This document shows positions 4,430 through 44,926 of a DNA stretch of 64,000 nucleotides, in pieces. The stretch is taken from contig LNEU01000033.1 of assembly GCA_001464355.1 (NCBI GenBank), positions 124,001 to 188,000 of the forward strand, given 5' to 3'. Numbering within the stretch: the stretch's first letter is position 1; every line of letters starts with the position of its first letter. The notes below the pieces were generated by a model. It worked only from the letters and a program-made list of their open reading frames with translations, did not search any database and was not told the origin of the DNA. This stretch comes from Burkholderiales bacterium Ga0077544. GTDB lineage: Bacteria > Pseudomonadota > Gammaproteobacteria > Burkholderiales > Burkholderiaceae_D. Made by a program: the position numbers and the translations under genes.

Positions 4430-6777
4430 AGCTTCGGAAACACTTGAGTGGCATGAGTCTATCGTCGCGCATCGTGATCGTGATGCTGGCCTTGTTGCTC
4501 GCTGTGCAGGTTGCCGGCTTCTGGGCCGTGCGTGCGGCGCTAGAACGACAAGTCGGGAATGAAATTTCATCTGATCTGACAGTCGGCGAACGTATCTGGG
4601 AGCGATTACTGCAGCAAAATGCGCTGCGTTTGCGCGAAGCTTCCATCGTCCTTGCCGCAGACTACGGCTTCCGTTCTGCAGTTACGACTGGCGATCAGGA
4701 AACCATCGCATCCGCGCTGGAAAACAGCGGCGAACGGATAGGCGCATCGATTACCGCCCTGCTGGATCCTGGCCTGCTTCTTGTCAGCTCCAGCCAGACC
4801 GGCGGCAGCGATGCGATGGTCGCCAATGTTTTAAGTGATATCGGTGACACCTTGTCCAAGGATGTAGACGGTAGCCGGATCGCACTGGTTAATGGCGGCG
4901 TATATCAATTTGTGATGATCCCGGTGCGCGCACCTCTGACGGTCGGCTGGGTATTGATGGGGTTTCCCGTCAGCCAGCCCTTACTCGATGATCTGGAGCG
5001 ATTGGCTGGCGTGCACGTCACTCTGCTGTCGGGTAAGAATACTGATACACACAAATTGAAGCTGACTACCTTACCCGAGCAGCACAGCGCTATTGTGCAA
5101 GCAGCACAAGCCAAGGCACAGCAAGTGAATATCAACGGCGACACCATGGTTGCGCGCTATGTTTCCATAGACGCCTTGGGAGGCGTACTGCAAGTAGTGT
5201 TGATGCGCTCTATCGCTGAAGCCAATGCACCGTTTGCCAAACTGCAATGGATGCTGGGCTTGATCACGCTGGGCGGCGTATTGCTCTTCGCTGTCGGCAG
5301 CCAGCAAGCTGCGCGCTGGGTTACACAACCGCTCAAGGAATTGACATTGCTGGCCAAGGCTTTGGCATCCGGGAATTTTGATGTCGCTGTTTCCGGGAAA
5401 AATCGCGGGGATGAAGTCGGCCTGCTTGCTAACGGTTTTGACAGCATGCGCACCAGTATTGCAGCACAGAGGGAAGAAATTCTTCGCCTCGCTTACTGGG
5501 ACCGATTGACCGGCTTGCCGAATCGGGAAAAATTTCGCGAGACACTCAAGTCCGCGATCGAAAACAATCAGGATAGCGCTGCGCCATTAGTCGTCATCAC
5601 ACTCAATCTGGATCGCTTCAAACACGTCAACGATGTACTCGGTTACGCCTTTGGCGATGAGTTGCTCAAGGCAGTGGCACAGCGTTTGGGACAGCAGGTT
5701 TCTGGTGAAGGTAATCTGGTCGCGCGTTTGGCCGGCGATGAATTTGCCATTCTGCTGGCGAAGTCAGATGCGCAAAACGCACTCGCCATTACCAAGCAGA
5801 TTACCAAGGCATTTGAAGCACCACTGGCTTTAAACGAGCAAACCGTCGATTTAAGCGCCAGCATGGGCGTTGCATGCTGGCCGGCCGATGCGGCTGATGC
5901 CGATTTGCTGTTAAGTCGTTCTGAAATTGCCATGCATGCAGCAAAAAGCCAAATCGCCGGCGTGTTGTTTTATACACCCGCACTGGATTCTTCCAGTTCT
6001 CTGACCCTGTCGCTGCTCAGCGATTTGCGGCATGCCTTGCAAAATGGCGAGCTGCGCCTATTCCTCCAACCCAAGGTAGCAACCGCCACCGGGCAAGTCG
6101 TCGCCGCTGAAGCCTTGATACGCTGGCGGCATCCGCAGCGCGGCCTGGTACCGCCTATGGACTTCATCCCGTTTGCCGAACAAACCGGCTTTGTGCGACA
6201 ACTGACAATCTGGATGTTTGAAACGGCCGCGCAGCAATGGCGCGGTTTGCAACCAAGCGAAGGACACTTGCGCATCGCCATCAATTTATCCACACGTGAC
6301 TTGATGGACCCGGATTTTCCGCAGCGCTTGGCCACCATCATGAAAAATAGCGATGTTTCACCTTCCGCCTTCTGCCTCGAAATTACAGAAAGCGCGATCA
6401 TGGACGATCCGCAACGCGCGGAAGCCACGCTGTATAAATTGTCGGAGCAGGGATTCAAGCTTTCGATCGATGACTTCGGCACCGGCTTCTCTTCGCTTGC
6501 GTATCTCAAGCGCCTGCCGGTCAACGAACTCAAGATAGACAAATCATTCGTGATGGCGATGGACAAGGATGAAAGCGACGCCAAAATCGTTAAATCAACC
6601 ATAGATCTCGCCCACAATCTGGGCTTGTCGGTCGTCGCCGAAGGCGTGGAAAACAAGGTGCTGCTGGATAAATTACGTGAACTACACTGCGATGAAGCGC
6701 AAGGTTATTTCATCGCCAAGCCTATGCCATTCGACGAATTCGTTGAATGGAGAGCACGCTGGAATGCGTCGATCTAG
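4426..6777 (+). CDS. Membrane GGDEF-EAL c-di-GMP enzyme with periplasmic sensor domain
   Basis: A 783-residue inner-membrane signalling protein. An N-terminal transmembrane segment (about 16-36) precedes a roughly 240-residue periplasmic sensor region, a second transmembrane segment (about 276-298) and a HAMP linker (about 299-350). The GGDEF domain (about 355-515) has the signature altered to AGDEF at residue 435, and I see no RxxD inhibitory site. The EAL domain (about 530-775) retains EALIRW (561), the NLSTRDL asparagine, CLEITESA, IDDFGTGFSSLAYL, ELKIDKSF and VVAEGVEN, so phosphodiesterase activity looks intact; cyclase activity is uncertain. It is the last gene of a coupled operon with DUF4394 and cupredoxin-like proteins, which suggests that these modulate its periplasmic domain (inference). 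Confidence 0.92.
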   Translation: MKLRKHLSGMSLSSRIVIVMLALLLAVQVAGFWAVRAALERQVGNEISSDLTVGERIWERLLQQNALRLREASIVLAADYGFRSAVTTGDQETIASALENSGERIGASITALLDPGLLLVSSSQTGGSDAMVANVLSDIGDTLSKDVDGSRIALVNGGVYQFVMIPVRAPLTVGWVLMGFPVSQPLLDDLERLAGVHVTLLSGKNTDTHKLKLTTLPEQHSAIVQAAQAKAQQVNINGDTMVARYVSIDALGGVLQVVLMRSIAEANAPFAKLQWMLGLITLGGVLLFAVGSQQAARWVTQPLKELTLLAKALASGNFDVAVSGKNRGDEVGLLANGFDSMRTSIAAQREEILRLAYWDRLTGLPNREKFRETLKSAIENNQDSAAPLVVITLNLDRFKHVNDVLGYAFGDELLKAVAQRLGQQVSGEGNLVARLAGDEFAILLAKSDAQNALAITKQITKAFEAPLALNEQTVDLSASMGVACWPADAADADLLLSRSEIAMHAAKSQIAGVLFYTPALDSSSSLTLSLLSDLRHALQNGELRLFLQPKVATATGQVVAAEALIRWRHPQRGLVPPMDFIPFAEQTGFVRQLTIWMFETAAQQWRGLQPSEGHLRIAINLSTRDLMDPDFPQRLATIMKNSDVSPSAFCLEITESAIMDDPQRAEATLYKLSEQGFKLSIDDFGTGFSSLAYLKRLPVNELKIDKSFVMAMDKDESDAKIVKSTIDLAHNLGLSVVAEGVENKVLLDKLRELHCDEAQGYFIAKPMPFDEFVEWRARWNASI

Positions 6778-6810
6778 CCATTTGAATAATTAACAACGCT
6801 GATAGATACG

Positions 6811-6886
6811 TGGTGCGGCTGGCTGGAATCGAACCAGCGACCCTTGGCTTCGGAGGCCAATACTCTATCCACTGAGCTACAGCCGC
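6811..6886 (-). tRNA. tRNA-Arg (anticodon CCG)
   Basis: A full cloverleaf is read on the minus strand. Acceptor arms GCGGCTG/CAGCCGC pair, the D arm is GCTCAGTGGATAGAG, the anticodon loop CTCCGAA gives CCG, and the T arm is GCTGGTTCGATTCCAGC. The 3' CCA is encoded. 76 nt. Confidence 0.96.
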
Positions 6887-6962
6887 ATAAGGGGAACCCT
6901 TGAAGAGGTCTGCAGGATACCGTTTTTCTGCCCTTCCGTCCACGTATAGCCACGTTTTAGCG

Positions 6963-6991
6963 TTCCATATCGACTACTTTGTGACTATAAT
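6963..6991 (+). promoter_or_regulatory. Candidate sigma70 promoter for the cytochrome gene
   Basis: TTCCAT (6963-6968), a 17-base spacer and a perfect TATAAT (6986-6991) lie about 95 bases before the cytochrome start codon at 7088. The -35 box is poor, so this is moderate support only. Confidence 0.5.
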
Positions 6992-7087
6992 CAAGGGTTT
7001 GGCAAGGCATGAGCAAACCATGCGCCGCGCAGTCATCGTCGGCTGCATGCGCCGTCTAACGATTTTCGAAATTGTATTGAGGGAATA

Positions 7088-7636
7088 ATGAGCGACGCAC
7101 ACCACGAAGAATCAGCGATTAAAACGCCTAAGCAACTCATTTTAGCCATCCTGGCCGGCTTTCTGGTCCCCATCATCTGTATCGTTTTGCTGGTGATTTA
7201 CGTCACCAACGACAAATCCATCGGTGCAGGATCTGACGGTTTGTCACCTGAAGCAGTCGCCGAGCGTCTCAAACCGGTTGCTGATGAAGGTTTCACATTG
7301 AAAGATGTGAATGCACCGAAAGTATTGAAAACCGGTGAAGAAGTTTACAAAATGGCTTGCGCTGCCTGTCACACCACTGGCGCGGCAGGCGCACCCAAAC
7401 TCGGCGATACCGGCTCTTGGGCCCCACGCATTGCGCAAGGCTACGAAACTTTAGTCAAGCATGCCATCAACGGCATACGCGCGATGCCGGCAAAGGGTGG
7501 CAATCCTGATCTGGACGATGTTGAAGTTGAGCGTGTGGTCGTATTGATGGCCAATAGTGCGGGTGCCAAGTTTGCAGAACCTGCAGTGCCAGCGCCAGCT
7601 GCACCAGCCGCAGACGCCGCGGTTCCTGCAAAGTAA
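7088..7636 (+). CDS. Membrane-anchored cytochrome c5-type protein
   Basis: A 182-residue monohaem c-type cytochrome, probably carrying electrons in the periplasm. An N-terminal membrane anchor (about residues 17-40) is followed by a haem-binding CAACH motif near residue 95. A methionine in GIRAMPAKGG near 136 is the likely sixth ligand, and the pattern GAPKLGDTGSWAPRIAQG is characteristic of the cytochrome c5/CycB group. The C-terminus is an Ala/Pro tail. AGGGAA precedes the ATG at good distance. The gene stands alone between tRNA-Arg and a strong terminator, so its redox partner cannot be deduced from context. Confidence 0.9.
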   Translation: MSDAHHEESAIKTPKQLILAILAGFLVPIICIVLLVIYVTNDKSIGAGSDGLSPEAVAERLKPVADEGFTLKDVNAPKVLKTGEEVYKMACAACHTTGAAGAPKLGDTGSWAPRIAQGYETLVKHAINGIRAMPAKGGNPDLDDVEVERVVVLMANSAGAKFAEPAVPAPAAPAADAAVPAK

Positions 7637-37642: not shown

Positions 37643-39691
37643 TTAGATATCGACCGGGTCCACTTCCAGCGACCAGCGTACGCGCGACTTCAACTCGCGC
37701 AAAGTCGAAATCCAGACTTTCAAAAATGCCTGCAAGGCCGGACGCGATGAACATTCGACCAGCAATTGCGCCCTGTCGATATTTGCTACGCGTGTCATCG
37801 TCATCGGGATAGGATCGTTCATCGTGATGCCATCATGTTCGACGCAGTCTATCGCTTGATGCAAGAAGTCGAGCGCGATCTTCAGCTCTTTTGCTTCCGC
37901 GCGCAGCAAGGCTTGATACATGAATGGCGGGAAGCAAGCTTGTTGTCGCTCTTCCAGCAACTCGCCGGCAAAGGTATCGTAATCATGTTTGCGCACGGCT
38001 GAATACAGCGGATGTTGCGGATAACGCGTTTGAATCAAGACCTCACTTGCGCTACCACCTTCTTTTTGCGCGACACGACCAGCGCGACCGGCGACCTGCA
38101 TCAATTGCGCAAACAAGCGCTCACTGGCGCGGTAGTCATGCGAGAACAGCGCAGTGTCCGGATTCAGCACACCGACCAAAGTCAGATTCTGGAAGTCATG
38201 TCCCTTCGCCACCATTTGCGTGCCGATCAGAATATCGACCTCACCTCTATGCACACTATCAAAAGCTTCCTGCGCACTGCCCTTGCGCCGCGTCGAATCG
38301 GCATCGATGCGCAAGATGCGCGCTTCAGGAAATATCGCCTGTAGATTTTCTTCGACGCGTTGCGTACCGCGGCCCAACGGTTGGATATCGACGTTGCCGC
38401 AGTCTGGACAGGATCGCGGTATGCGCTGTTCGTAACCGCAATGATGGCAACGCAAACGGTTATCGAGTTTGTGTAGAACGAGGAAGGCGCTGCAACGCGT
38501 GCAATTGCTGACCCAGCCGCAGGAATCGCAGGAAAGCACAGGCGCATAACCGCGCCGATTCAGGAATAGCAAGGATTGCTCGCCTCGCTCGATACGCAAC
38601 TTCAATGCTGCGATCAAGGTGGCGCTAATGCCTTCCACCATTTGTTCGCGCGGCGCTTTGCGTTCCAGATCAATTAAGCCGACTTTCGGCAGCACCGCAT
38701 CCTTGACGGCGCGCTCGCGCAATTCCAGTTTGCGATAACGACCGGATTGCGCGTGATGCCAGGTTTCCAGCGAAGGCGTGGCCGAACCGAGCACGATCGG
38801 AATACTTAGTTGATGCGCGCGCCACACCGCCAGATCGCGTGCCGAATAACGCAAGCCTTCTTGCTGCTTGTAAGACGGATCATGTTCTTCGTCGACGATG
38901 ATCAATTTCAAATGCGGCAATGACGACAGGATCGCGAGGCGCGTGCCGAGAATAATCCGCGCCTGTCCCAAATGTGCGGACAGCCAATGCGTCATCCGCT
39001 CGCCTTCCGCCAAGCCACTGTGCAAAGTTGCAAGCGCCACCCCGGGGAAACGCGCCCGCACATTTGCCTCCAGCTGCGGCGTCAGATTGATCTCAGGCAC
39101 CAGGATCAGGATTTGCGCCGGATTATGTTCATCGATGCTGTGCGCCAGAATTTGCGCGGCGGCTTGCAAATACACTTCTGTCTTGCCACTGCCGGTCACG
39201 CCGTACAACAAGGTAGGCGCAAACCCCTGCGCACCGGCAATCGCATCAGCTGCAGCTTGTTGTGAAGCATTGAGTTGCGGCATCGCGATAGGCGTCGCAT
39301 CATGCACGCCATCTGCCTTGCCCAATTTCTTGACGGCTTTATCCAGCGAGGTGGTTTTGAGTGCGCGCAGGTTTTTCGGCAAACCGGGAATCGCGACCTC
39401 GCCCAAAGGACGCTGGTAATAGTCGGCAGCAAATGTGCATAGCGCAATCCATTCCGCGGATAGCGGCGTTAATTGCGTACGCACTGCAATCGCCTGCTTG
39501 AGTTTTTCCAGCGGCACGTCTGTGGTCTCGTGCACGGCGACGATCAAGCCCATCACTTCACGTCGACCGAATGGCACCAAGACCAATTGCCCGATCAAAG
39601 GACGAACGGCGTCCGTTGCTAGCGGCCAAACATAGTCGAAGCAGAAATCCAGCGGTGTGTCGAGGGCGACTTTAAGGATGCAATGTTCCAC
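37643..39691 (-). CDS. priA: Primosomal protein N' (replication restart helicase)
   Basis: A 682-residue 3'-5' helicase that reloads the replisome at stalled forks. The N-terminal DNA-binding part (about 1-110) is followed by the helicase core with Walker A GVTGSGKTEVYL and Walker B IIVDEEHDPSYKQQ. A zinc-binding module of eight cysteines follows (CDSCGWVSNCTRC, then CHHCG and CPDCGNVD). The motifs VLIGTQMVAKGHDF and QVAGRAGR are conserved. It is about 50 residues shorter than E. coli PriA, but all motifs are present. It begins at the edge of the DnaA-box-rich intergenic region. Confidence 0.96.
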   Translation of the reverse strand: MEHCILKVALDTPLDFCFDYVWPLATDAVRPLIGQLVLVPFGRREVMGLIVAVHETTDVPLEKLKQAIAVRTQLTPLSAEWIALCTFAADYYQRPLGEVAIPGLPKNLRALKTTSLDKAVKKLGKADGVHDATPIAMPQLNASQQAAADAIAGAQGFAPTLLYGVTGSGKTEVYLQAAAQILAHSIDEHNPAQILILVPEINLTPQLEANVRARFPGVALATLHSGLAEGERMTHWLSAHLGQARIILGTRLAILSSLPHLKLIIVDEEHDPSYKQQEGLRYSARDLAVWRAHQLSIPIVLGSATPSLETWHHAQSGRYRKLELRERAVKDAVLPKVGLIDLERKAPREQMVEGISATLIAALKLRIERGEQSLLFLNRRGYAPVLSCDSCGWVSNCTRCSAFLVLHKLDNRLRCHHCGYEQRIPRSCPDCGNVDIQPLGRGTQRVEENLQAIFPEARILRIDADSTRRKGSAQEAFDSVHRGEVDILIGTQMVAKGHDFQNLTLVGVLNPDTALFSHDYRASERLFAQLMQVAGRAGRVAQKEGGSASEVLIQTRYPQHPLYSAVRKHDYDTFAGELLEERQQACFPPFMYQALLRAEAKELKIALDFLHQAIDCVEHDGITMNDPIPMTMTRVANIDRAQLLVECSSRPALQAFLKVWISTLRELKSRVRWSLEVDPVDI

Positions 39692-39751
39692 AGAGTTAAT
39701 GTAATACCTGAGGAAGTGGTCTAACTACCCGTTTCATAAGCGCTTTTTTAT

Positions 39752-39786
39752 CTATCCACAGCGATTGTGGATAACTTTGTGGATAA
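39752..39786. repeat. DnaA-box module 1 of 3
   Basis: CTATCCACA (39752-39760, inverted; one mismatch to TTATCCACA), then TGTGGATAA at 39766-39774 and again at 39778-39786. The two direct boxes are 12 bases apart. Confidence 0.85.
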
Positions 39787-39951
39787 CAGCCTCTTGACAG
39801 CCGGAGAGGCCAGTATTTATGCGGGCCTCAACAGATTGCCTAAAACCAAAGCATAAATTTAATTGTATATAATCAATGACTTACAAATACGTGATTTTTA
39901 TAATTAATAAATATGCGAAATAAATCATGTTGCTACGCACAAGCTCTTTTT

Positions 39952-39960
39952 TGTGAATAA
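39952..39960 (-). repeat. Solitary DnaA box
   Basis: TGTGAATAA reads TTATTCACA on the minus strand and fits TTATNCACA. Two further solitary matches lie at 40345-40353 (same sequence) and 40766-40774 (TTATGCACA on the minus strand). Confidence 0.65.
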
Positions 39961-40146
39961 GTTTTTGTTTGTCGGACAAAAGATGTCGTCATGACAAACT
40001 AAATATGCATTTTCAATTACTGTTTTGACAAGTCCTTGTTTCCACATAAGAAAAAGCGCCAGCAGGCATTTTCTTGCGAGTACACAAGAGCTTGATGCGG
40101 GAAGAAGAAAATCCGCCTAGCCCCGATTTTGTATGCTTTTTACCAA

Positions 40147-40181
40147 CTATCCACAATTCCTGTGGATAACTTTGTGGACAA
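40147..40181. repeat. DnaA-box module 2 of 3
   Basis: Same layout as module 1: CTATCCACA (40147-40155), TGTGGATAA (40161-40169) and TGTGGACAA (40173-40181), the last box differing by one base. It lies 395 bases from module 1. Confidence 0.85.
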
Positions 40182-40565
40182 ATCACGTTGCATTCTGTCC
40201 AGCAACATCCCCACTTTAATGCGCATTCTTTAATCCACTTGACCACAATAAATAAATCCATATAAATCAATGATTTATTGAAAATTCCTTGCCGCAACAT
40301 AATATCCAGATAATAAGCATTCTCGTTAGCTTCGCGCACTATTTTGTGAATAAGCTAGTAAGGTTTCTGTCATTAAAATATCTATTAAGCAATCTTTTTG
40401 TTAAATACTCTTTTCAGCTCGCATTGTGAAGTGCTGCTTTAGTGCATCTTTCTTTCCAGGGCTCGTGCTGGATGTGCACTATTCGCGAAGAAACAAGCAT
40501 CTGCCAAACCTCATGTGAAGTATCACCAAATGCGCTAACTCCACGTTTCTAAAGCTCTTTTTTAT

Positions 40566-40600
40566 CTATCCACAATTCCTGTGGATAACTTTGTGGATAA
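40566..40600. repeat. DnaA-box module 3 of 3
   Basis: CTATCCACA (40566-40574), TGTGGATAA (40580-40588) and TGTGGATAA (40592-40600). It lies 419 bases from module 2. The spacing inside all three modules is identical. Confidence 0.85.
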
Positions 40601-40894
40601 GACCGGGAAATGCACATTTGCGCCAGATTTCATGCGGGTTTCAATAAAATGCCAAAACAAAAAGCAAAATATTTTCCCAATAAAATCAAATACTTAAAAA
40701 ATTCACTTTGTTAAGAAACGTTAAACACGATATAAATTGACAACACTATGCCGATTTACAATTTCTGTGCATAAGGTTAATTACTGCGCGCCAAAAACGA
40801 GCGTTGATGCTGGCAGGCAAGTGCATTATTGCGCTTTGTTAAACAGCATGGCTTGCATATGGTGCGCAGGCTCCGCGAACGGGCACAGTTGTCT

Positions 40895-41977
40895 TTATGC
40901 GTGCAAAGGTCGACTGAATTCGTGCACGGCTTCCACCAGAACAGAGACGGCTTCCGGCGGCGTGAACTGCGAAATGCCATGCCCCAGATTGAATACGTGG
41001 CCGGAACCGGGCGCATGTTTGCCAAATGATTCGAGTACCTTGGCGACTTCGGCGCGGATTTGATCCGGCTGCGCAAACAGAATCGTCGGATCCAGATTGC
41101 CTTGCAAGGCGACACGATCGCCAACCAGCGCACGCGCATTCGCCAGATTGACTGTCCAATCCAAACCGACCGCATCGGCACCTACGCCTGCGATTTCATC
41201 CAGCCATAAACCGCCACCTTTGGTAAACACGATACTTGGAATACGCACGCCGTCTTTTTCCGTCTTGACGTGCTTCATGACTTCACGCATGTAATGCAGC
41301 GAAAATTGTTGATACGCGCCATCGGCCAAGGCGCCGCCCCAAGTATCGAACATCATGACGGCTTGGGCGCCGGCATCGATCTGTGCATTCAGATAGCTTG
41401 CGACTGTAATCGCATTGGTTTGCAGAATGTGATGCATCAGATCCGGGCGGTTATACAGCATCGCCTTGACGGTGCGGAAGTCGTCAGAACCGCCGCCTTC
41501 GACCATGTAGCAAGCCAGGGTCCACGGGCTGCCGGTGAAGCCGATCAACGGTACACGCCCATTCAACGTGGTGCGTATCTGCGTCACCGCATCGAATACG
41601 TATTGCAGCGAACCCAGCTCCGGCACGCGCAGCGCCATCACCGCTTTTTCATCGCGCAACGGACGTTCGAACTTTGGCCCCTCACCTTCGATGAAGTACA
41701 GGCCCAGCCCCATCGCATCCGGCACCGTCAAAATATCGGAAAACAGGATGGCGGCATCCAGATCGTACCTATCCAGCGGCTGCAAAGTCACTTCAGTTGC
41801 ATAATCCGGATTTTTTGCCAGACCGAGAAAAGAGCCTGCGCGGGCGCGGGTGGCGCGATACTCGGGCAAGTAGCGTCCAGCCTGGCGCATCAGCCACAGC
41901 GGCGTGTATTCGGTAGGTTGACGCAATAATGCACGTAGAAAGGTGTCGTTCTTGAGCGGAGCAAATTGTGTAGGCAT
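40895..41977 (-). CDS. hemE: Uroporphyrinogen decarboxylase
   Basis: A 360-residue cytoplasmic enzyme of haem synthesis that decarboxylates uroporphyrinogen III to coproporphyrinogen III. The N-terminal signature [20 protein letters not shown] carries the substrate-binding arginines. [20 protein letters not shown] holds the catalytic aspartate, and [19 protein letters not shown] and [14 protein letters not shown] are conserved. Its 3' end borders the DnaA-box region. Confidence 0.97.
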
Positions 41978-42816: not shown

Positions 42817-44694
42817 TTATTTTGCGACCACCGGCTGGCTAGTCTCGCTGATGATTTGCCAGCGGCCATCGACACTTTCCCATTCCAGCGTTTTTTGCAC
42901 GGTGTCCTTATATGACGAGGAACGATAATTCTGCACAAAAGTACTGGTCGCGAATTTGGCGTCCTTGATATCGATCTTGATGTCACTGACAGCCACTTCA
43001 ATATTCTGCGCACCGGAGATCGCTGCCGTGCGTTGCGCGGCCCACGCATCGCGCGTCATTCCACGCGCAGGTATGAAGTTTTTCGCATACGCTTGCAAAT
43101 AATCGACAACGTTGCGGCGCGACCATGCCTCTGCCCAACGCGTAATTGCAGCGGCGACTGCGTTGCGGGGCGCATCCTGAGTTGCCACAGCAGATGCAGG
43201 CGCTACAGTAGCAAACGCGCCAGGAGCTGCATTCAACGAGCCATTGGCGGCGGCCGTGGCACGTGCCGCGGCGGCCGAAGCAGCAACTGCGGCAGATTCA
43301 CGCACAAGTTCTTCAGCACGTGCATTCAATGCATCTTTGTCGACCACATAGCTGTCTGGTCCCAGCGGCGGACAACCGCTTGCAGTTTCGCCGCTCTCGG
43401 AAATGTCCGGCAATGTGGAAACGGCCTGGCGTGCCAGACCAAGACTGGAGAACAGTGTGCCCATGCCGGCATTGGTACGCGCATAGGCAACACTCAAATC
43501 GAAATCAGAATTCACATAGGCGCGCTTGGCCTGGAATAATTCATTTTCGGTATCCAGTACGTCAAGCAAACTGCGTTGGCCGATATCGAACTGCATGCGA
43601 TAGGCATCGCGTGCTTTTTCAATCGATAGCTGATGCTGGTCCAGGTAGATCAACTGTTCCGTCAGCTTGCGGGTATCGTTATAAGCGATCGACAAGGTCT
43701 GGCGCAGATCGCGGCAGGTTTTATCGCGCAGGTCGCGCGCCACATTGATCTGCTCTGCGTACTGACGCACACGGGCGCGATCGCTGCCGCCATTGAACAG
43801 ATTCCATGTCATGACGATTTCGGCAGAATTACTTCTGCTTTCACCTGTAGGACCGGTATTGCTCGACAGGTTATCGCCGCGATCGCTACGCAAACGGAAA
43901 TCGAAGCGCGGCTGAAACGCAGCATTGCGGATTTTGGCCGAGCTGTTGGCTGAACGGACATTTTCAATCGCTGCCAGCAAAGCCGGATTACGGTCGGCGA
44001 CTTTTAAAGCCGCACTCAAGTTTGGCGGCATGTTCTTGTTCAAATCGCCGGGCATTGCCATATTCGGACCAGGCGCGGTACCGACCAGACGCTGGAAGCG
44101 CGCGCTGACGTCATACAGATTAGAGGTATCGATCAATAGATTCGATTCGGCGAGGGCGAGACGACCGGCAGCCTGCTCCAGATCCACGCGACGGCCGACA
44201 CCGGCATTGGTTTTTTCACTGATTTGCGAGAAAACCGAGCGATGGCGTACGTAATTTTCTTCAGAAAGGGCGGTCAATGCACGATGGCGCAAGACGTCGG
44301 CATAGGCGCGCACGACTTCCAGCGTGGTGCTTTCGGTAATGTCGTACAACTCAAAAAGGCGCACGCGGCGCGCAAAATCCAGTCGATCGACTTCATTGCT
44401 GGTAGCAAAACCGTCATAGATCAGTTGCGTTAGCGTGACCGTTGCAGAGTTACGATTGCTGCGCGTTTGTACCGGCTGCTGGTAATGATCGCGACCGACA
44501 CCGGCACTGACATCAAGCCGCGGCAGGAATGCGCCGAAGGCCACATCGCGTTCGCCGTCCGCTGCTTCAAAAGCGTGAACCCGCGCTTCGATTTCAGGAT
44601 TGGTGAGCACCGCCTGCTGCGCGGCATCTTTCAAAGTCTGCGCCGACGCGCCTAGCGGTAGCAGCAGTAATAAACTCCAGTAAATTTTACGCAT
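42817..44694 (-). CDS. lapE: TolC-family outer membrane channel (LapE-like) with C-terminal NTF2-like domain
   Basis: A 625-residue outer-membrane component of the adhesin's type I secretion system. The start at 44694 opens a signal peptide (MRKIYWSLLLLLPLGASAQ). The two TolC repeats span about residues 20-430, with motifs QLIYDGFATSNEV, RHRSVFSQISEKTNAGVG, ETV-type helices, WNLFNGGSDRARVRQYAEQI and FDIGQRSLLDVLDTENELFQ. An Ala-rich linker (about 470-510) leads to an extra domain of about 110 residues (AITRWAEAWSRRNVVDYLQA, then SDIKIDIKDAKFATSTFVQN and WESVDGRWQIISE) resembling NTF2/SnoaL-like or Cds6-type domains. Standard TolC proteins end before this point. The gene is divergent from lapG. 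Confidence 0.9.
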   Translation of the reverse strand: MRKIYWSLLLLLPLGASAQTLKDAAQQAVLTNPEIEARVHAFEAADGERDVAFGAFLPRLDVSAGVGRDHYQQPVQTRSNRNSATVTLTQLIYDGFATSNEVDRLDFARRVRLFELYDITESTTLEVVRAYADVLRHRALTALSEENYVRHRSVFSQISEKTNAGVGRRVDLEQAAGRLALAESNLLIDTSNLYDVSARFQRLVGTAPGPNMAMPGDLNKNMPPNLSAALKVADRNPALLAAIENVRSANSSAKIRNAAFQPRFDFRLRSDRGDNLSSNTGPTGESRSNSAEIVMTWNLFNGGSDRARVRQYAEQINVARDLRDKTCRDLRQTLSIAYNDTRKLTEQLIYLDQHQLSIEKARDAYRMQFDIGQRSLLDVLDTENELFQAKRAYVNSDFDLSVAYARTNAGMGTLFSSLGLARQAVSTLPDISESGETASGCPPLGPDSYVVDKDALNARAEELVRESAAVAASAAAARATAAANGSLNAAPGAFATVAPASAVATQDAPRNAVAAAITRWAEAWSRRNVVDYLQAYAKNFIPARGMTRDAWAAQRTAAISGAQNIEVAVSDIKIDIKDAKFATSTFVQNYRSSSYKDTVQKTLEWESVDGRWQIISETSQPVVAK

Positions 44695-44926
44695 AGGGCC
44701 TTGCTTGTGACTGTCCACAGGACGGACGAAAATAAAATTCTTACTTTATACAAGACATTTCGATAGCGGAATGTTAATTCTTGTGAATGGCGTATCGATA
44801 ATACGACGGTTCTTGTACTATCCATGCGACGAAAATGCTCTCTAACACCTGCCTTTTTCGGCGAATGCTATGATCAAATTGTTCGAGCATTCATAGATAT
44901 CGCAGGCCTTCACCAAATTCTCTCCA

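What the first reader, a model, noticed from the sequence alone, without database searches (positions are those of the whole stretch)
39692..40894. Triplicated DnaA-box module in an AT-rich priA-hemE gap: candidate oriC or DnaA-titration locus
Seen directly: three copies of a 35-bp module (39752, 40147, 40566), each with one inverted and two direct DnaA boxes at identical spacing, plus three solitary TTATNCACA matches and two very AT-rich tracts in 1.2 kb without genes. Known: such clusters define oriC, and related loci (datA, DARS) regulate DnaA. In many betaproteobacteria oriC is taken to be next to dnaA, which is absent here, so this is either a displaced origin or a second DnaA-binding locus. 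The near-equal 395/419-bp periodicity is unusual.
Basis: partly seen in the sequence, partly recalled or inferred. Interest (0 to 1): 0.75.

Follow-up and report, generated by a model that had tools for sequence, protein, structure and literature searches.

The report
Triple IHF-looped DnaA control locus
Between two ordinary genes of a Herminiimonas-like bacterium sits a threefold repeat of a DNA switch that probably controls the protein that starts chromosome copying; it combines the layouts of two different E. coli switches and recurs beside the same gene in other proteobacteria.

Summary
In detail: three 35-bp modules, each with one inverted and two direct DnaA boxes (39752, 40147, 40566), in the hemE-priA gap. 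It is very unlikely to be oriC: dnaA lies about 85 kb away and the skew plateau begins about 45 kb away. The three-box core has exactly the spacing and orientation of E. coli DARS1 and DARS2 (5 and 3 bp); the box III-IHF-box IV part has the orientation and the 93-bp spacing of E. coli datA. Of 77 cores in 51 of 80 named priA loci, 76 keep the IHF site and 76 keep box IV, and the IHF-to-box-IV distance moves in helical-turn steps. A strict pattern finds the unit in 66 of 369 class-level genomes (reversed-pattern control 0), beside priA in 29 of 65, always in the same orientation. Best reading: a datA/DARS-type DnaA control locus, triplicated here, more probably datA-like (removing active DnaA after initiation) than DARS-like. 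DnaA and IHF binding and the direction of action are not shown. New variant of a known kind.

The parts
39752..39786 (+). Unit 1 core: DnaA boxes I (39752-39760), II (39766-39774, inverted), III (39778-39786, inverted)
   Evidence: same 5/3-bp geometry as E. coli DARS1 and DARS2
39871..39883 (+). Unit 1 IHF consensus AATCAATGACTTA, 93 bp after box III start
39952..39960 (-). Unit 1 DnaA box IV TGTGAATAA, 81 bp after IHF site start
40147..40181 (+). Unit 2 core: boxes I (40147-40155), II (40161-40169), III (40173-40181, one mismatch)
40265..40277 (+). Unit 2 IHF consensus AATCAATGATTTA, 92 bp after box III start
40345..40353 (-). Unit 2 DnaA box IV TGTGAATAA, 80 bp after IHF site start
40566..40600 (+). 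Unit 3 core: boxes I (40566-40574), II (40580-40588), III (40592-40600)
40684..40696 (+). Unit 3 IHF consensus AATCAAATACTTA, 92 bp after box III start
40766..40774 (-). Unit 3 DnaA box IV TGTGCATAA, 82 bp after IHF site start
37643..39691 (-). priA; unit 1 core begins about 60 bp upstream of its start
   Evidence: Pfam PriA domains
40895..41977 (-). hemE; transcription leaving it would enter the array from the box IV side of unit 3
   Evidence: Pfam URO-D; read-through itself not tested

Best explanation
A non-coding DnaA control locus of the datA/DARS class, not an origin, made of three tandem IHF-looped units. Shown from sequence: each unit has a three-box DnaA core (box I opposite to II and III), an IHF consensus 92-93 bp after box III, and a further DnaA box IV 80-82 bp after the IHF site, in fixed orientation; the arrangement is conserved in relatives and the last distance varies by helical turns. 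Inferred: DnaA binds the core and box IV, IHF bends the DNA so that the two meet on the same helical face, and DnaA oligomerises. Because the locus is copied early after initiation, doubling it ties up DnaA and most likely promotes turnover of ATP-DnaA to ADP-DnaA (datA-like), which limits re-initiation. Read-through from hemE would cross box IV, then the IHF site, then the core, the order in which glyVXY read-through crosses datA in E. coli, and could time IHF release (inferred). My split of direction: datA-like removal of active DnaA about 0.45, DARS-like reactivation about 0.25.
For: Core spacing and orientation identical to E. coli DARS1 and DARS2, the described hallmark of DARS. Box III to IHF site 92-93 bp against 93 bp in datA, IHF site to box IV 80-82 bp against 69 bp, all elements in the same orientation. 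Of 77 cores in named relatives 76 have the IHF site at +117 to +119 (61 perfect) and 76 have box IV; 0 of 16,000 Markov-1 simulations had both. IHF-to-box-IV distances cluster near 60, 71, 81 and 92 bp. Unit in 66 of 369 class-level and 80 of 300 order-level genomes, reversed control 0. Skew and dnaA place the origin elsewhere. IHF-alpha and Hda genes are present.
Against: No binding or activity data. The strict pattern misses 303 of 369 class-level and 220 of 300 order-level genomes. In 29 of 65 genomes the unit stands beside priA in one orientation, which also fits a priA operator. No Fis site at constant offset, unlike DARS2. Several order-level units show no recognisable box I (e.g. L150, L151, L184-L186). 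Distance of priA-linked units from dnaA varies from 20 kb to roughly 0.5 Mb, so 'origin-proximal' is loose. The DARS core and the datA loop predict opposite effects.
Confidence: 0.7

Rival explanations
1. DARS-like reactivator: ADP-DnaA assembles head-to-head on boxes I-II-III, IHF helps, ADP leaves and ATP-DnaA is regenerated; three copies raise initiation potential. (A sub-reading of the best explanation with the opposite sign.)
For: Exact DARS core geometry in all three copies; E. coli DARS2 also has an IHF-like site after the core, at +108 with one mismatch.
Against: Box III to IHF to box IV matches datA in orientation and first spacing, and I found no box IV at the matching place in DARS2; no Fis site at constant offset; in E. 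coli, DARS1 inserted very close to oriC raised origin concentration and was thought possibly disadvantageous (PMC5010248, passages).
Confidence: 0.25
2. Operator of priA: DnaA and IHF at the unit control priA transcription in cis, coupling replication restart to initiation.
For: Unit beside priA in 29 of 65 class-level genomes with a hit, 29 of 29 in the same orientation, core nearest priA; unit 1 core about 60 bp from the priA start here.
Against: 36 of 65 genomes have the unit only elsewhere, some between converging genes (L153, L155, L169, L178); tandem copies reach 0.9 kb from priA; G048, G070 and G079 have further units with no priA or hemE match nearby; the promoter scan gives no clear priA promoter above background (6 found, 3.9 expected).
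Confidence: 0.17
3. Passive titration site only: the boxes hold DnaA without changing its nucleotide.
For: At least 12 DnaA boxes in 1.02 kb; titration by boxes near the origin has experimental support in E. coli (PMC12371093, passages).
Against: Titration needs neither a fixed IHF site nor helical phasing, yet both are conserved.
Confidence: 0.1
4. The chromosomal origin oriC, displaced from dnaA.
For: Dense DnaA-box cluster with AT-rich stretches and IHF sites in an intergenic gap.
Against: Skew keeps falling through the locus and turns at 210-255 kb of the contig; a box pair follows dnaA at 250 kb and another box cluster lies at 209.65-209.82 kb; relatives carry further units 1.4-1.9 Mb from dnaA and several genomes carry 3-4 units.
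Confidence: 0.03

Closest known systems
E. coli datA (DDAH locus)
   Same: DnaA box, IHF site, DnaA box in the same orientation; first spacing 93 bp in both; non-coding; non-origin
   Different: datA has 69 bp to the second box against 80-82 here; its box next to box 3 has the opposite orientation to box II here; single copy; not near priA; activity here untested
E. coli DARS2
   Same: Core I-5-II-3-III identical in spacing and orientation; an IHF-like site follows in the same orientation
   Different: IHF-like site about one turn nearer the core (+108) and with one mismatch; DARS2 needs Fis, no constant Fis site here; I found no box IV at the matching place in DARS2
E. coli DARS1
   Same: Core identical in spacing and orientation; the 5-bp spacer ATTCC is the same as in units 2 and 3
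   Different: No IHF match within one mismatch in the searched flank of DARS1; single copy
DnaA-box clusters of Bacillus subtilis and Streptomyces
   Same: Described as datA-like clusters repressing untimely initiation (PMC10950094, passage)
   Different: Not compared here

Membership tests
DARS | Three DnaA boxes, box I opposite to II and III, at the DARS1/DARS2 spacing | tested here: met
   5 and 3 bp spacers in all three units, DARS1 and DARS2
DARS | IHF and Fis sites in the regulatory part (DARS2 type) | tested here: inconclusive
   IHF consensus met in 3 of 3 units; Fis consensus matches at offsets 55, 73 and 208, not constant
DARS | Stimulates ADP release from DnaA | not testable with these tools
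   needs biochemistry
datA | DnaA box, IHF site, DnaA box with functional orientation and spacing | tested here: met
   same orientation; 92-93 bp against 93, 80-82 against 69; other relatives have 60-61, 69-73 or 92. The second spacing is not identical
datA | Close to oriC | tested here: inconclusive
   about 45-90 kb from the skew plateau/dnaA in this genome; priA-linked units in other genomes 20 kb to roughly 0.5 Mb from dnaA
datA | Promotes DnaA-ATP hydrolysis | not testable with these tools
   needs biochemistry
oriC | At the skew minimum | tested here: not met
   locus at 163.7-164.9 kb, plateau at 210-255 kb
oriC | One per chromosome | tested here: not met
   three units here; further units far from dnaA in relatives

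The most novel reading that the evidence does not exclude
The unit is the ancestral DnaA nucleotide switch of beta- and gamma-proteobacteria, originally upstream of priA: one IHF-looped element with both a DARS core and a datA loop, able to act in either direction depending on whether IHF and box IV close the loop. E. coli datA (loop kept, core eroded) and DARS2 (core kept, box IV lost) would be two specialised halves. Oxalobacteraceae amplified the ancestral form in tandem, and some keep a second copy far from the origin.
Probability: 0.25. Interest if true: 0.88.

Novelty: new variant of a known kind. Interest (0 to 1): 0.7.

Why it matters
The papers I could read describe datA and DARS mainly from E. 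coli. This gives a sequence-defined, helically phased composite of the two that occurs in many beta- and gamma-proteobacterial genera and is often tied to priA, so the evolution of the DnaA ATP/ADP switch outside enterics becomes directly testable. It also provides a search pattern for DnaA control loci in unannotated genomes, and a caution against calling such clusters oriC.

Tried and rejected
oriC: rejected on skew and on multiple copies. The exact origin was not resolved: plain GC skew points to about 214 kb, third-position GC and AT skew to about 255 kb.

Fis sites: consensus matches exist but not at a constant offset, so no claim. Conserved promoter: TTGACA at +41 occurs in 19 of 80 units, and promoter and terminator scans are near background. 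Hidden gene: no Pfam match for the one internal ORF. Rfam at gathering threshold finds only the three tRNAs elsewhere in the window.

Against the reading: E. coli K-12 has no unit upstream of priA (one box with one mismatch, no IHF match). Only 5 of 29 named loci in L117-L145 (Alcaligenaceae, Burkholderia, Ralstonia and Cupriavidus relatives) have a core at up to 4 mismatches, three of them at exactly 4. 14 of 145 family genomes lack a core match at up to 3 mismatches. L163 among the class-level loci has off-group distances (91 and 75) and may be a chance hit. The resultant length for phasing is similar at periods 10.0, 10.5 and 11.0 (0.76, 0.78, 0.75), so the period itself is not resolved.

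Literature: ten searches, seen as listings. Passages were read in PMC5742627, PMC12371093, PMC4245941, PMC10380432, PMC4585315, PMC5010248 and PMC10950094. None of these reported the composite unit or its priA linkage. One review says sequences like DARS1 and DARS2 are conserved in many proteobacterial species, another speaks of beta- or gamma-proteobacteria for DARS2, while the 2014 DARS2 paper limits the DARS2 core to gamma-proteobacteria related to E. coli. The primary DARS and datA papers are not held. The numbers of the datA boxes (2, 3) are assigned by me from the order given in the review, not from a coordinate table; that the loci at bioD-uvrB, mutH and glyVXY-queG are DARS1, DARS2 and datA is recalled, with the datA neighbours confirmed.

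Full report
Setting. The window is bases 124001-188000 of contig C33 of a 3.25-Mb genome in 34 contigs. Its PriA is 97% identical to that of Herminiimonas fonticola, the best of 80 named loci, so the source is probably a Herminiimonas. The gap 39692-40894 lies between priA and hemE, both on the minus strand, so transcription leaving hemE would cross the gap towards priA.

Observation. The three modules are present at the stated coordinates. Each is box I, 5 bp, box II, 3 bp, box III, with box I opposite to II and III. The single boxes at 39952, 40345 and 40766 stand at nearly the same place after each core. A second repeat family of 13-mers at 39871, 40265 and 40684 matches the IHF consensus WATCAANNNNTTR perfectly in all three copies; the 554-kb contig has 41 such sites in all. 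What is repeated is therefore a unit: core, 92-93 bp from box III to the IHF site, 80-82 bp from the IHF site to box IV.

Not the origin. dnaA is at 248,808-250,190 and dnaN starts at 250,676 of C33; the locus is at 163,692-164,894. Cumulative GC skew is -3415 at 165 kb and falls to -4843 at 214,467. Third-position GC skew and AT skew put the turn at 254.6-255.3 kb. Other DnaA-box sites lie at or inside that plateau: three perfect TTATCCACA within 165 bp at 209,651-209,815, and a box II-III pair just after dnaA at 250,218.

Comparison with E. coli. DARS1 has TTATCCACT, TGTGGATAA and TGTGTATTA at 208, 222 and 234 of L146; DARS2 has TTATTCACC, TGTGGATAG and TGTGAAGAA at 1636, 1650 and 1662 of L147. 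Both have 5- and 3-bp spacers and the orientation seen here, which a review gives as the hallmark of the DARS core (PMC5742627, passages). datA, read in reverse complement, has TGTGAATAA, 93 bp later the IHF site TATCAATAGGTTA, and 69 bp later TGTGGATAA, each in the orientation of box III, IHF site and box IV here (coordinates, arithmetic mine). datA depends absolutely on its boxes 2 and 3 and the IHF site, and spacing matters (PMC4585315, passages). The unit thus combines a DARS core with a datA loop. In DARS2 the nearest IHF-like site in this orientation is at +108 with one mismatch, about one helical turn nearer the core, and no box IV was found at the matching place within two mismatches.

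Named relatives. Of 80 priA loci, 51 carry at least one core with up to 4 mismatches, every one upstream of priA: 46 of 51 among L066-L116 (mostly Oxalobacteraceae and MAGs) and 5 of 29 among L117-L145. H. fonticola has three, Herbaspirillum sp. CF444 and the three Collimonas loci two, the two Ralstonia loci one. Of the 77 cores, 76 have the IHF site at +117 to +119 (61 perfect) and 76 have a perfect TGTGNATAA at +177 to +210. With the three window units, 78 of 80 have both; of 16,000 Markov-1 simulations none had both. The IHF-to-box-IV distance falls in groups near 60, 71, 81 and 92 bp; over 39 distinct genus-label/distance pairs the resultant length is 0.78 at a period of 10.5 and hardly less at 10.0 and 11.0. 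The pairs are not phylogenetically independent, so the nominal Rayleigh p (6e-11) overstates the case. In the family sample 131 of 145 genomes have a core match with up to 3 mismatches, reversed control 0; of eight genomes of the same genus, own included, seven have three matches and one has two.

Wider distribution. A strict pattern (box, 70-98 bp, perfect IHF consensus, 46-76 bp, box IV) hits 66 of 369 class-level genomes (58 of 272 genera) and 80 of 300 order-level genomes (52 of 135 genera), own genome included in both and some family members in the second; the reversed-pattern control is 0 in the genomes listed. So 303 of 369 and 220 of 300 have no strict hit. Among the 57 loci read, most also have box II 12 bp before box III and many a box I-like sequence at 5 bp, but some lack box I. 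priA was placed in 63 of the 65 other class-level genomes with a hit. In 29 of 65 the unit is beside priA (28 at 69-452 bp from the edge of the PriA domain match, one at 2.7 kb), 29 of 29 with the core nearest priA; 36 have it only elsewhere or on another contig, and 48 of 77 hits are elsewhere. Some lie between converging genes: dctM and a shikimate dehydrogenase gene (L153, L155), a SpoIIE-type phosphatase and a HemN-like gene (L169), an ABC-type ATPase and an AraC-type regulator gene (L178). E. coli K-12 has no unit upstream of priA.

Position. priA-linked cores or units lie from dnaA about 20 kb (G054), 81 kb (G079), 106 kb (G048), 113 kb (G386), 121 kb (G063), 163 kb (G393), 253 kb (G178), 334 kb (G368), 390 kb (G001, taken as circular) and 510 kb (G251); G026 is at roughly 0.5 Mb. 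G048, G070 and G079 also carry pairs of cores about 1.87, 1.79 and 1.45 Mb from dnaA (circles assumed where the path crosses the contig end), each core with the IHF site at +117 or +118, box IV in 4 of the 6, and no priA or hemE match nearby. A near-origin and a far locus recalls datA and DARS in E. coli; the resemblance is mine.

Mechanism. Shown: geometry, conservation, phasing, position off the skew turn, presence of IHF-alpha and Hda genes. Inferred: DnaA and IHF binding, loop closure, and the effect on DnaA. I favour a datA-like role because box III, IHF site and box IV match datA in orientation and first spacing, because the locus is copied early as datA is, and because read-through from hemE would cross it in the order in which glyVXY read-through crosses datA, where transcription goes with IHF release (PMC10950094, passages). 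The DARS core argues the other way; in E. coli only insertions of DARS1 very close to oriC raised origin concentration (PMC5010248, passages). A priA operator remains possible, but units away from priA and between converging genes argue against it as the main function.

Novelty. DARS-like sequences in other proteobacteria are already mentioned in print (PMC10380432 and PMC5742627, passages), though the DARS2 paper restricts its core to gamma-proteobacteria near E. coli (PMC4245941, passages). In ten searches of the held library I found no report of the composite unit, its phasing, its tandem copies or its link to priA. Most subscription papers are not held, so this is a limited statement. I file it as a new variant of a known kind and do not call it a member of datA or DARS, since the activity that defines either was not tested.

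Noticed in passing
contig C33:209651-209815 (outside the window): Three perfect TTATCCACA within 165 bp, at the left edge of the skew plateau, between two divergent ORFs: a candidate oriC.
   Followed up: partly
contig C33:250218-250238 (dnaA-dnaN gap, outside the window): A fourth copy of the box II-III pair directly after dnaA, without a TATCCACA box I: a second candidate origin site or dnaA/dnaN control.
   Followed up: partly
L212 (G054) about 4860-7375 and L213 (G112) 5050-6698: Dense arrays of DARS-like cores without the IHF site at +117 to +119, in two genomes of one genus of the family.
   Followed up: partly
L147 (E. coli DARS2 region) about 1952-1986: A second, degenerate core-like arrangement (TTATCCCAG, 5 bp, TGTGGATAA) about 316 bp after the DARS2 core (sequence), as if DARS2 were once a tandem too.
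   Followed up: no
window 39794-39799 and relatives: TTGACA at +41 from box I in 19 of 80 units, pointing towards the IHF site; possibly a promoter reading into it.
   Followed up: partly
window 42817-44718 (-): Outer membrane efflux protein (OEP) with a C-terminal Cds6_C NTF2-like domain.
   Followed up: no
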